Shown here: positions 32,792-36,624 of the stretch, in pieces
Layout: every line of letters begins with the position of its first letter
How positions within the stretch are numbered: position 1 is the stretch's first letter
Assembly (NCBI GenBank): GCA_027451905.1
Contig: DAIDHV010000001.1
Location: 410,667 to 474,666, forward strand
Source: Armatimonadota bacterium
Lineage (GTDB): Bacteria > Armatimonadota > Fimbriimonadia > Fimbriimonadales > Fimbriimonadaceae
Direction of reading: 5' to 3'
Length of the DNA: 64,000 nucleotides
Program-made: the position numbers and the translations under genes
Notes under the pieces: generated by a model
What the model saw: only the letters and a program-made list of their open reading frames with translations
The model's database searches: none
What the model was told of the DNA's origin: nothing

Positions 32792-35700
32792 TTATTCGAG
32801 GAGAATTGCGATGATGTCGATAAGGATATCCCCAGCGGCAAGGTCTGAGGACCCTGAATCGTTGTCTACTAATCCAGCGGCACGAGCTTGAGCCTGCGTA
32901 AGCATGGCACGTGGGCCCGTCGGCCAGTCCCTCTTGTGCTTTTTCGGTTTCTTTTCGGGCTTTGGAGCAGGACCTTCTCCCTGCTCAAATCTTCTCCTTT
33001 TGCGCTCATTGTGAGCATCCCACTTATTTGGATTCTGTTGCTTCTTTGCTGTCCCTTGCCCACTTGTGTGTTTATCGTGAGTCGAGCCCCTTGCTCCCTT
33101 CCTATGACCTTTAGTAAGCCCGGAGCCATCAATCCACTGTAAAGGATTGTTTCTGCAGTAGTCGTACCAATTCTCACCGTCCTTGGCGGGGTCCCGCGTG
33201 AGGAAGCGGCCGGTGGATGGGTCATAGTACCGATGCCCAAGAAGTTGGAATCCGGTGTCTTGGTCAGATTGGTACCCATACTGCCCATTGAAGCCTAATG
33301 GTCCCTGCGGTGCGCCGGTTGAAGAGACCAAATTCCCAAACGCATCATATTGAGTGGTCGAACTCACGTTTTGGGAGGAATCCGTCTGCATCACGTTCGA
33401 CCCCATCCTATCTGAACCATAAAAAAGTGTTGATCCTCCTGCCGTTCTGGAAATCCCAGGGGTGTATTCAGCAGTCCCATCATTCAGTAAAGAATCGGTC
33501 ACTCCAACCCCATCTCTGCGGTAAACATGGCTGCCTGAACTATCCACTTTCCCAACCCTTGTATCCAACCCATTATAGCTGAAAGTATCAGAAAGGCCAT
33601 TGGGCCCCGTGATTGACGTCAACCGGTTCTCATAGTCGTAGCTCAAATTGGTGGTTCCAGCCGAGGTTGTGATGGACGTTGTTCTTCCTGCCGCATCATA
33701 AGTGAAGCTTTTGATGGTGCTTGAGCCTTCTGTAATCGACTCTAGTTTATCAGCCGAGCCGTAGTTATAGGTTTGCACCACCCCGTTCAGGGTTTCCGAA
33801 GCTCGGTTGTGATTGCCATCATAGGTGAAGGATTCTGAGTAATTGGGACCAATCTCTGAAGTAAGTTGGTTATCAGCATCATAGCCGTAGCTGGTGACGG
33901 CACCATTCACGGATTTGCTACCGAGATTTCCAGCCCCATCATACACATCAGATTCTGAATACAAAGAAGTTCCAGTGGAAGTTTTAGTCTGCTCGGCGAT
34001 CGTGCGCCCCCGTGAATCATAAGTGGACGATTCCACGGTTCCATTGGCAAAGGTGGTTGAAGTTAGATGACCATCGGCATCGTAAGAAAGAGCGGTAGAC
34101 TGCCCTTCGGGATTCGTCTCCGAAATCAGTCTATCGGCCGCATTGTAGGTGTAGCCAAACGAGCCAGTTCCATCGGTGAGGCTGGATTTACGCCCATCAT
34201 TGTCATACGAATAACTCATGTTGCCCTGAGGGGTGTTGAGATTTGTGACCTGGCCAAGAGCATTGTAGCTCCAAGATGTGGTTCCGGTGGAATCGGTCAT
34301 CTGGGTCATTCGAGAAGCCGCATCATAGGTGAATCCAACGCCCACCCCGGCGGGGTAAGTGATGCCAGTTCTTTCGTCAGCACCATCGTAGGAATACGAG
34401 TTGGTTTGATTGAGGGGATTGGTGTAGCCAGTGGTATTGCCATCTCCATCGTAGCTCCATTTTTCTTCGGAGCCGTCGGCTAGGGTGAGGCTGGTGACTT
34501 CGCCTCTGGCATCATAGGCATAGGTCCTTGTTTGGTTATTGCCGGTTGTTACCGAGGAAAGTCTCTCGGCGGCGTCATAGGCAAAAGAGGTCGTGTTACC
34601 GTCGGCATCTGTTTTTGAGGTCTTTGAGCCATCGGCATCATAGGTCCACGTGGTTTCATGGCCAAGCTCATCGGTTGTGCTGGTGACGTTGCCGTTCCCA
34701 TCGTAGGCGGTTTCCGTGGTGGTTCCATCTGGGTTTGTGGTCTTTATCGGTCTTTCCCACGCATCATAGCTGGTGAGGGTCGTGTTGTTGAGGGCATCTG
34801 CTGAGGATATTGGATTCCCAAAAACATCATATTCAAACTGATCTTTATTGCCAAGGGGATCGGTTGCCGAAAGTAGGTTTCCAGCTGAGTCATAGGTAAA
34901 GCTTGTTGTATTGCCATAGGCATCGGCAGTTGTCGCCATCTCTCCAAGGCCGTTGTAGGTATTCGTCTCTACCGTATTGCCCAACGGATTCTTGACCTGG
35001 AGAAGGTTGCCATGAGAGTCGTAGCCAAGACTTGTGACGTTTCCAAGCCCATCCGTGTAGGAGGTCTCCTCGCTAAAGCCATTGTAGATCGCAGAAACCG
35101 TTCTGCCAAGGGGATCTTTGGCGGAGGTTGTGTTGCCTAGGGAATCATAGGCGTACGTCCAGGTTTTGCCATTTTCATCCACGATTGTGGTTGGGTTATG
35201 GTTGGCATCGCGTGTTGTGTAGCTGACGCTAAATCCGGCTGGATCGACCTCGCTGGCAAGTAATCCGGAGGCGTAGTTATCGGTAGTGGTGTGACCAAGA
35301 GGATCGGTAAAGGTTGTTGCGCTTGAGGAGTAGCTGACGGTGGTTGTTTTGCCGTTCCCGTCGGTCATGCTCTCAACCGAGCCGTCGGAGTTGTAAGCAA
35401 CCGAGTCCACATTGCCATCCCGATCCGTGTGGCTGAGGATTTGCCCAGTCGTATTATAGGTGAAGGAATCTGTGTTGCCGTCGCCGGGGATGGTTGGTCT
35501 GGTTACAGAGGTGAGGTTGTTGTTGCTGTCGTAGGTGAACGTGTACACATTACCGGAAGGATCGGTCACGGACTGCCACTGATTATTGGCATTGAGGGCA
35601 ATGCTAATGGTTCTGTGATCGGGGGTTATGATTGAGGTGATATAGTTGGCAGAGTTCTTGGTGAAACCGGTTGCGTTGCCATTGCGGTCCACGATTGCAC

Positions 35701-36400
35701 TGATGAAGCCGTTGACGTCGAAATCGTACGTTGTGCCGTGTTTGGTCACAAGGGTCCATGTTCCATCGCTGTTTTTGGTGAGGGAGTCGTAAATTCCAGC
35801 AGGCGGTGTGTAGGAACTTCCTCCACCACCGGTGCCAGGAGAGCCAGGGCTGCTTACTGTGAAGGGCACGGCAAGACCATCGCCCCAGTGGACGATAGGA
35901 CTGCCGGTGAGGTTGTTGATATAGATGTCATAAGACCAAGTCCAACCGTTGCCAAGTTCGTCGGAATAGCTGGTCTCCGAGTTGTGAAAAAGAGTCAGAT
36001 CGACCGATCTGCCATCAATGATCCCAACCTTAAAGAGGTTCAGTTTGGTAAGAAGGTCTCCATTGCCCGTGTTAGTTGACCCAGTTGGGGCTCCATAGCT
36101 TCCTTCCCACGGATAGGTGCTTCCTGGCGAGGACTCGACTGCTAACGTGTGGATTGAGCCAGGTAATAAGGCGGCAACAAGGCTGCGACTGAGATAAGGC
36201 TGCTCCAACAGAAGCTGTTTTGACCATACGCCGCCTCGGCTTGCTTCCTTGCCAATTCCATCCGGCTTGAAAGGCTTTTGAGGAAGAGTGGTAAAGACGC
36301 CTGGGTAAGATGTCTTTGCCTTTTTGGTGAGGGTTTTCACCAGCTTTTCTCCCGACTTCACCCCTGCCGCAATCGCCTGAGAACTGGCAGAAAGGACCAT
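32792..36400 (-). CDS. RHS/YD-repeat protein with variable C-terminal tip
   Basis: 1202 residues from the ATG at 36400. Dozens of YD repeats (pattern YDxxGxxxxxTDxxGxxTxxxYD) fill residues ~200-1040, followed by the RHS core end YGYQSDQDTGFQLLGHRYYD and PSTGRFLTRDP, which marks the cleavage point before the tip. The last ~110 residues are unlike the rest: basic (NERKRRRFEQGEG, KPEKKPKKHKRD) then acidic-hydrophobic; no toxin family is recognised. Upstream in frame the DNA encodes a signal-peptide-like stretch (SLIFRVIAFGIAGVMVLSA), so the true start lies further out, separated by the C10 tract. It probably forms a secreted or surface shell. Confidence 0.85.
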   Translation of the reverse strand: MVLSASSQAIAAGVKSGEKLVKTLTKKAKTSYPGVFTTLPQKPFKPDGIGKEASRGGVWSKQLLLEQPYLSRSLVAALLPGSIHTLAVESSPGSTYPWEGSYGAPTGSTNTGNGDLLTKLNLFKVGIIDGRSVDLTLFHNSETSYSDELGNGWTWSYDIYINNLTGSPIVHWGDGLAVPFTVSSPGSPGTGGGGSSYTPPAGIYDSLTKNSDGTWTLVTKHGTTYDFDVNGFISAIVDRNGNATGFTKNSANYITSIITPDHRTISIALNANNQWQSVTDPSGNVYTFTYDSNNNLTSVTRPTIPGDGNTDSFTYNTTGQILSHTDRDGNVDSVAYNSDGSVESMTDGNGKTTTVSYSSSATTFTDPLGHTTTDNYASGLLASEVDPAGFSVSYTTRDANHNPTTIVDENGKTWTYAYDSLGNTTSAKDPLGRTVSAIYNGFSEETSYTDGLGNVTSLGYDSHGNLLQVKNPLGNTVETNTYNGLGEMATTADAYGNTTSFTYDSAGNLLSATDPLGNKDQFEYDVFGNPISSADALNNTTLTSYDAWERPIKTTNPDGTTTETAYDGNGNVTSTTDELGHETTWTYDADGSKTSKTDADGNTTSFAYDAAERLSSVTTGNNQTRTYAYDARGEVTSLTLADGSEEKWSYDGDGNTTGYTNPLNQTNSYSYDGADERTGITYPAGVGVGFTYDAASRMTQMTDSTGTTSWSYNALGQVTNLNTPQGNMSYSYDNDGRKSSLTDGTGSFGYTYNAADRLISETNPEGQSTALSYDADGHLTSTTFANGTVESSTYDSRGRTIAEQTKTSTGTSLYSESDVYDGAGNLGSKSVNGAVTSYGYDADNQLTSEIGPNYSESFTYDGNHNRASETLNGVVQTYNYGSADKLESITEGSSTIKSFTYDAAGRTTSITTSAGTTNLSYDYENRLTSITGPNGLSDTFSYNGLDTRVGKVDSSGSHVYRRDGVGVTDSLLNDGTAEYTPGISRTAGGSTLFYGSDRMGSNVMQTDSSQNVSSTTQYDAFGNLVSSTGAPQGPLGFNGQYGYQSDQDTGFQLLGHRYYDPSTGRFLTRDPAKDGENWYDYCRNNPLQWIDGSGLTKGHRKGARGSTHDKHTSGQGTAKKQQNPNKWDAHNERKRRRFEQGEGPAPKPEKKPKKHKRDWPTGPRAMLTQAQARAAGLVDNDSGSSDLAAGDILIDIIAILLE

Positions 36401-36477
36401 GACACCGGCAATGCCAAAGGCAATGACCCTAAAAATAAGGGATTTGGAACGATGGTTGCCAAATAGTATACCTCTGT

Positions 36478-36561
36478 CTACAAAATGGGGGGGGGGCAGC
36501 CAACAGTCTTAAGCAGATGATTTGCCAAACGGCGAAACTTGAACGATGTGAAATCCCTCAT
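36478..36561 (-). other. Upstream ATG frame that a +1 slip would fuse to the RHS gene
   Basis: ATG at 36561, with GAGAG 9 nt upstream, opens a 27-codon frame that reads through the 10-C tract and stops at 36478. One extra C (11, or 8) removes the stop and joins it to the RHS frame 54 codons upstream of the ATG at 36400, restoring a signal-peptide-bearing N-terminus. Confidence 0.5.
36487..36496 (-). repeat. Homopolymeric C10 tract (G10 on the plus strand)
   Basis: Ten consecutive C on the coding strand of the RHS gene, 87 bp before its first in-frame ATG. It is the only tract of this kind noticed in the window. Such tracts change length by slipped-strand mispairing. Confidence 0.95.
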
Positions 36562-36618
36562 TTCCAACTCTCTTCAGCTTTGCAACAAGAATTGCTTCTT
36601 TGCAAACCTGTGAAAAAT

Positions 36619-36624
36619 ACTATA
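36619..36624 (-). promoter_or_regulatory. Candidate -10 element for the RHS gene
   Basis: TATAGT on the minus strand in an AT-rich stretch, 58 nt before the ATG at 36561. A transcript from here would include that ATG and the C10 tract. No clear -35 box is present. Confidence 0.4.

What the first reader, a model, noticed from the sequence alone, without database searches (positions are those of the whole stretch)
36478..36561. A C10 tract puts the RHS gene one base out of frame with a plausible upstream start: candidate phase switch
The frame from the annotated ATG (36400) stays open upstream and encodes a signal-peptide-like run (SLIFRVIAFGIAGVMVLSA), but no ATG/GTG/TTG exists in that frame before a stop. 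An ATG at 36561 with GAGAG in front, on the transcript from a TATAGT at 36619-36624, runs into the tract of ten C and stops at 36478. With 11 (or 8) C the two frames join and the full secreted protein is made. So the sequenced state would be OFF. Slipped-strand switching of surface proteins is well known; for an RHS shell it would be unusual.
Basis: partly seen in the sequence, partly recalled or inferred. Interest (0 to 1): 0.75.

Follow-up and report, generated by a model that had tools for sequence, protein, structure and literature searches.

The report
C-tract phase switch for RHS gene
A run of ten C bases near the start of a secreted RHS (toxin-shell-like) gene puts it one base out of frame, and similar runs at the starts of other secreted-protein genes in this genome and its relatives suggest a slippage-based on/off switching system not previously reported, as far as I could find, in this group (Fimbriimonadaceae-like, Armatimonadota).

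Summary
A C10 tract (36487-36496, minus strand) lies between an ATG (36561), whose frame stops at TAG 36478, and the open RHS frame that contains the signal peptide and has no ATG/GTG/TTG before its own stop.

It is more than chance. Genome-wide, maximal G/C runs number 41 (length 7), 3 (8), 3 (9), 3 (10) and 2 (11): a steep fall, then an unexpected plateau. Seven of the eight tracts of 9 or more sit within about 120 nt of a gene start; the three C8 tracts lie inside intact genes. Two tandem paralogs have G9 breaking a textbook signal peptide. Several relatives have tracts between a TTGACA -35 and a -10 before secreted proteins; in one, three near-identical leaders (two before RHS genes) carry C10, C11 and C12. 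The RHS paralog in this genome has C7 at the same place.

Not shown: length variation at this locus, the true start codon, and hence the OFF state. C7 and C10 share one register, so a CTG/TTG start at the tract, a consensus undercall, a decayed gene or programmed frameshifting remain possible. The mechanism is a known kind; gene class and lineage appear new.

The parts
32792..36400 (-). RHS/YD-repeat gene, 1202 aa from the first ATG in its frame; Rhs-associated core at residues 1018-1095, then a 107-aa variable tip without a family match
36401..36508 (-). upstream extension of the RHS frame, open, without ATG/GTG/TTG, containing the n-region and most of the h-region of the signal peptide
36365..36457 (-). 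signal-peptide-like segment NHRSKSLIFRVIAFGIAGVMVLSASSQAIAA
   Evidence: hydropathy maximum 2.05 over 15 residues; Ala-X-Ala end
36487..36496 (-). C10 tract, the candidate slippage site (C7 at the same place in the own-genome paralog)
36478..36561 (-). short frame from ATG 36561 through the tract to TAG 36480-36478 (27 codons plus stop); same ATG-to-TAG frame in the paralog leader
36568..36575 (-). GAAGAGAG, weak Shine-Dalgarno-like sequence before ATG 36561
   Evidence: -4.9 kcal/mol, not exceptional against random positions (25% quantile -4.2, 10% quantile -6.1)
36619..36624 (-). TATAGT, extended -10 (TGTTATAGT), conserved in all four leader copies of the genome
31995..32480 (-). small TPR-repeat protein downstream of the RHS gene; possible immunity or accessory gene (guess)

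Best explanation
The C10 tract is a contingency (phase-variation) site. Slippage of the tract during replication changes its length by one or two C and so joins or separates the upstream start (most likely ATG 36561, on the transcript from TATAGT 36619-36624) and the RHS frame with its signal peptide. In a cell population the secreted RHS protein is thus made by some cells and not by others. With ATG 36561 as start, the sequenced C10 state is OFF. Shown: tract, frames, protein-like extension, paralog leader with a different tract length, and a genome-wide and family-wide set of similar tracts at starts of secreted-protein genes. Inferred: that the tract changes length at this locus, the start codon, the OFF state, and the function of the RHS protein (probably competition with other bacteria).
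For: Frame anatomy. Coding signal between tract and 36400 in the RHS frame only. Genome run lengths 7/8/9/10/11 = 41/3/3/3/2, a plateau unlike a random tail (P about 7e-5 for 8 of 11 tracts at continuation 0.17). 7 of 8 tracts of 9 or more lie within about 120 nt of a gene start (P about 3e-4); the three C8 tracts are in the middle of intact genes. Tandem paralogs on C2 read MKNILI-(G9)-signal peptide out of frame. The own paralog of the RHS gene has C7 in the same leader. Relative G012 has C10, C11 and C12 in three copies of one leader, in a TTGACA promoter spacer, two of them before RHS genes. Relatives have the same TTGACA-tract-(-10)-ATG-secreted-protein layout, e.g. a perfect TATAAT with C16 or G9 in the spacer, and signal peptides cut by tracts. 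Excess of tracts of 10 or more over exactly 9 in its family (79 to 56) but not in another family of the order (2 to 29).
Against: No read data or second strain: length variation at this locus itself is not observed. C10 and the paralog C7 differ by three and share one register, and the two C2 tracts are both G9, so all four are out of frame in the same sense; a systematic cause is not excluded. The 35 nt between the conserved leader and the tract differ at roughly 40% of positions between the two copies and carry no protein-like conservation, so translation through them is not supported by comparison. The Shine-Dalgarno at 36561 is weak. Most RHS genes of the family have no long tract at their start.
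Confidence: 0.62

Rival explanations
1. Same slippage switch but with the opposite sign: translation starts at the CTG touching the tract (TTG in the paralog), so that C10 and C7 are both ON and other lengths are OFF.
For: Both copies are in frame from that codon and share the register; the open RHS frame reaches the codon with no stop.
Against: No Shine-Dalgarno in front; CTG is a rare start; the 35 nt upstream differ widely between copies.
Confidence: 0.12
2. The tract is really one base longer (consensus or assembly undercall) and the gene is simply intact and constitutive, or it is a fixed frameshift in a decaying gene.
For: All four frame-type tracts of the genome are off by one in the same sense; the paralog RHS gene also carries an in-frame TAG; the genome is probably a metagenome bin, to judge from its fragmentation and its relatives.
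Against: 36 runs of 6 or more lie inside intact ORFs of the window, and all three C8 tracts lie inside intact genes, so general homopolymer errors are rare; the RHS body of 1202 codons is intact; even an intact gene one base longer would carry a hypermutable tract.
Confidence: 0.14
3. Programmed -1 ribosomal frameshifting (or transcriptional slippage) on the C tract makes a fixed fraction of full-length protein without any DNA change.
For: C10 and C7 both need a -1 shift and both are followed by ATTTTGTAG, as in slippery sites with a nearby stop.
Against: No conserved downstream stem: the predicted fold in the window (z -2.1) is not seen in the paralog (z 0.05); no internal Shine-Dalgarno; the promoter-spacer tracts of the same kind cannot be explained by frameshifting.
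Confidence: 0.06
4. Chance homopolymer in an untranslated leader, with the RHS protein starting at ATG 36400 without a normal signal peptide.
For: ATG 36400 exists in frame; shuffles give about 3.5 C8 matches in a window of this composition.
Against: The genome avoids runs of 8 and has a plateau at 9-11; the stretch before 36400 has coding signal and completes a signal peptide; ATG 36400 has no Shine-Dalgarno.
Confidence: 0.06

Closest known systems
Translational phase variation by homopolymeric G/C tracts within the 5' coding region of surface-protein genes (Neisseria, Campylobacter, Helicobacter contingency loci; general knowledge)
   Same: A G/C homopolymer of 9-11 between start codon and signal peptide or body; one-base changes join or split the frame; several such loci in one genome, mostly exported proteins
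   Different: Lineage (Fimbriimonadaceae-like, Armatimonadota) and gene (secreted RHS protein); no measured switching here
Promoter-spacer phase variation (Neisseria porA/opc type; general knowledge)
   Same: In relatives, and at C5:9327 of this genome, a G/C tract lies between TTGACA and a -10-like hexamer just before a secreted-protein gene
   Different: At the window locus the tract lies downstream of the promoter and within the frame, not in the spacer
Rhs elements with C-terminal displacement and orphan tips (PMC2935791; orphan Rhs toxin selection in Salmonella LT2, PMC3967940)
   Same: RHS core with variable tip; arrays of displaced core-plus-tip fragments elsewhere in the genome (C1:172-189 kb, C5:31-34 kb)
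   Different: Sec-type signal peptide at the N-terminus and a slippage tract at the start; no report of homopolymer switching of an rhs gene was found
Meningococcal TpsA/tpsC cassettes (PMC3848433)
   Same: Secreted competition protein with exchangeable 3' cassettes in a genome that also uses slipped-strand switching
   Different: In that paper slipped-strand switching is measured for other proteins (NalP, Opa), not for the competition protein

Membership tests
Slipped-strand phase-variable (contingency) locus | Homopolymer long enough to be hypermutable (about 8 or more G/C) placed so that its length decides frame or promoter spacing | tested here: met
   C10 between ATG 36561 and the RHS frame
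Slipped-strand phase-variable (contingency) locus | Tracts over-represented against the genome's own run-length tail and located at gene starts | tested here: met
   41/3/3/3/2 runs of 7/8/9/10/11; 7 of 8 near starts
Slipped-strand phase-variable (contingency) locus | Tract length differs among copies or relatives | tested here: inconclusive
   C10 against C7 in the paralog (same register); C10, C11, C12 in the leaders of relative G012; nothing from another strain at this very locus
Slipped-strand phase-variable (contingency) locus | Mixed lengths within a population and reversible switching of the product | not testable with these tools
   no reads, no culture
RHS/YD-repeat protein | RHS repeats and Rhs-associated core domain followed by a variable tip | tested here: met
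   PF05593 E 9e-106, 15 stretches; TIGR03696 above cut-off, residues 1018-1095
RHS polymorphic toxin | Tip with a known toxin domain and a cognate immunity gene | tested here: inconclusive
   107-aa tip has no NCBIfam match, and the whole protein has no Pfam match beyond RHS_repeat and DUF6531; a TPR gene lies downstream
Secreted (Sec) protein | N-terminal signal peptide reached by a start codon in the sequenced state | tested here: not met
   Signal-peptide-like segment present, but no ATG/GTG/TTG in frame upstream in the C10 state

The most novel reading that the evidence does not exclude
Fimbriimonadaceae and some relatives use a genome-wide set of G/C-tract contingency loci, both in promoter spacers and within signal-peptide frames, to switch secreted proteins, RHS proteins among them, so that an RHS gene with exchangeable tips is also turned on and off by slippage.
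Probability: 0.5. Interest if true: 0.72.

Novelty: new member of a known kind. Interest (0 to 1): 0.6.

Why it matters
Homopolymer phase variation is known mainly from host-adapted bacteria. A repertoire of such loci in what appears to be a free-living Armatimonadota lineage, with an RHS competition-type protein among the switched genes, would extend it to a new phylum and to bacterial conflict proteins, and would explain why the protein appears broken in the assembly. It also predicts a defined list of tracts that can be checked in any deep metagenome of these organisms.

Tried and rejected
1) 'The paralog shows the gene ON': rejected; C7 and C10 are in the same register. 2) Truncated leader copies before orphan RHS fragments as proof of the ATG: not usable; in C1:189.1 kb and C5:31.7 kb the leader fuses to the RHS core at or just before the ATG, at a GGAAA-like microhomology; they only support the promoter. 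3) G19 in the RHS gene of relative G014 (L040): set aside as a probable scaffold/poly-G artefact because it abuts N; several other very long tracts in relatives lie at contig ends and are also suspect. 4) A general link of tracts with RHS genes across the family: not found; of about 50 RHS leader regions (some of them duplicates) only the G012 pair, apart from the window and paralog, has a convincing tract. 5) RNA structure for programmed frameshifting: not conserved. 7) Paper searches for phase variation in Armatimonadetes/Armatimonadota, homopolymers with Fimbriimonadaceae, or phase variation with Rhs gave nothing relevant.

Full report
Observation. The minus strand reads ATG at 36561, with the tract of ten C at 36496-36487, then ATTTTGTAG, so the ATG frame stops at 36478. 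The RHS gene (32792-36400, 1202 aa; RHS repeats E 9e-106, Rhs-associated core at residues 1018-1095) is open upstream of its first ATG for 36 codons, through the tract, to a TAA. In that stretch there is no ATG, GTG or TTG, only ATT, ATA and a CTG that touches the tract.

Is the upstream stretch translated? Codon usage favours the RHS frame between tract and 36400 (+4.9 against -3.3 and -11.8). Against the paralog, 9 substitutions fall at codon positions 1, 2 and 3 as 5, 0 and 4; the amino-acid changes are mild. The stretch supplies the basic and hydrophobic parts of a signal peptide ending in AIAA, which the annotated ATG cuts off. So a start upstream of 36400, reached through or at the tract, is likely. 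ATG 36561 is the natural candidate, with a weak Shine-Dalgarno-like GAAGAGAG (-4.9 kcal/mol, not outstanding) and TGTTATAGT upstream, conserved in all four leader copies in the genome.

The paralog. On contig C10 an RHS gene of about 50% identity (with one in-frame TAG in its body) carries the same leader, 86% identical in DNA, with C7 instead of C10. Its ATG frame ends at the same TAG. The tract length has therefore changed between copies, but by three, leaving the register the same. The 35 nt just before the tract differ at about 40% of positions (my count on the alignment), while the 30 nt from the ATG are identical; I have no explanation for this patch.

Is the tract special? The genome (2.87 Mb, 37 contigs, 98% complete; a named relative is a Fimbriimonadaceae MAG) holds 41 G/C runs of exactly 7, 3 of 8, 3 of 9, 3 of 10 and 2 of 11. 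The fall from 7 to 8 is fourteenfold; then the numbers stay level, which a random tail does not do (P about 7e-5 with a continuation rate of 0.17). The three runs of 8 lie in the middle of intact genes. Of the eight runs of 9-11, seven lie within about 120 nt of a gene start (P about 3e-4): the RHS gene; two tandem paralogs on C2 whose frame reads MKNILI, then G9, then AIFALFLLPLSAFAQ in a different frame; C5:9327, TTGACA-(11 nt)-G11-TAGTCT-6 nt-ATG of a signal-peptide protein; C2:225658, TTGACT-9 nt-G10 before a 157-aa protein; C6:8864, C11 directly after a signal peptide; and C1:568940, G9 about 90 nt before an acyl-CoA-dehydrogenase-like gene. The eighth (C5:191560) follows TTGACA but no clear gene follows it.

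Relatives. In one relative (G012) three copies of a leader on one contig have TTGACATA followed by C10, C11 and C12, then AAGTCCT or TGGTCCT and TATCCT; two precede RHS genes about 47% identical to the one in the window. There the tract is in the promoter spacer, while in the window it is in the reading frame. Other relatives have TTGACA, tract, a -10 and a secreted protein in a row: TTGACA-AA-G9-ATATGC-TATAAT (spacer 17), TTGACA-CG-C16-GCGA-TATAAT (spacer 22), and G10, G12 and G13 examples; or signal peptides cut by tracts (L162, L164, L167, L170). TTGACA followed by G8 or C8 within 14 nt occurs at about 31 distinct places in 41 genomes, against 13 matches of the reversed pattern, so the enrichment is about twofold. 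In the window's family, tracts of 10 or more outnumber tracts of exactly 9 (79 to 56), while another family of the same order shows 2 to 29 (P 4e-8). Some very long tracts in relatives are at contig ends or next to N and may be artefacts. A sample of 28 tracts of relatives is near gene starts in 13 cases (24% expected; P 0.007) and inside genes in 17 (90% expected).

Mechanism. The best reading is slipped-strand phase variation of a secreted RHS protein: replication slippage changes the tract, and the start and the signal peptide come into or out of one frame. The sign depends on the start: with ATG 36561 the sequenced state is OFF; with the CTG/TTG touching the tract, C10 and C7 are both ON. 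I prefer the first because of the promoter, the spacing and the lack of any ribosome site before the CTG, but the second is not excluded. A consensus undercall is the main technical rival: all four frame-type tracts of the genome are off by one in the same sense. Against it, 36 runs of 6 or more in the window and the three C8 runs of the genome sit inside intact genes. Programmed frameshifting lacks a conserved structure and does not account for the promoter tracts.

The RHS gene itself. The tip after residue 1095 (107 aa) has no NCBIfam match. Fragments of the RHS core with other tips lie in arrays on C1:172-189 kb and C5:31-34 kb, mostly 82-91% identical over the core, two of them behind copies of the same promoter, as in C-terminal displacement of enterobacterial rhs genes (PMC2935791) and orphan Rhs toxins (PMC3967940). 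A role in competition between bacteria is likely by family, not shown.

Known or new. Slipped-strand switching by G/C tracts in frames and in promoter spacers is a known kind of mechanism. I found no paper on it in Armatimonadetes/Armatimonadota or on an rhs gene under such control; the library holds only open-licence papers, so this is weak evidence of absence. I file the locus as a new member of a known kind, in a new lineage and gene class.

Noticed in passing
L011 (own genome C2:417577 and C2:420274): Tandem paralogs of about 500 aa without family match, each with a G9 tract that breaks the signal peptide MKNILI..AIFALFLLPLSAFAQ; each is followed by a secreted protein ending in KYTGPEK. 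Candidate phase-variable pair.
   Followed up: partly
L055 (own genome C1:172-189 kb) and L147 (C5:31-34 kb): Arrays of displaced RHS core-plus-tip fragments; two carry copies of the RHS promoter/leader fused to the core at a short microhomology near the ATG.
   Followed up: partly
window 36497-36531 against L046: 35-nt patch between conserved leader and C tract that differs at roughly 40% of positions from the paralog although both flanks are nearly identical; cause unknown.
   Followed up: no
L069, L084, L065, L067, L072, L079 (relatives and own genome): Secreted-protein genes with G/C tracts between TTGACA and the -10 hexamer, some with a perfect TATAAT; candidate promoter-spacer switches across the order.
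   Followed up: partly
L128 (G012:C16:61999): Third copy of the G012 RHS leader, with C12, now in front of a different secreted protein.
   Followed up: partly
L010, L014 (own genome C2:225658, C6:8864): Prepilin-like genes (type IV pilin/pseudopilin-type N-terminus) lie directly downstream of the tract-bearing small genes at both sites; a similar gene also lies near the tract at C5:191560 (L013).
   Followed up: no
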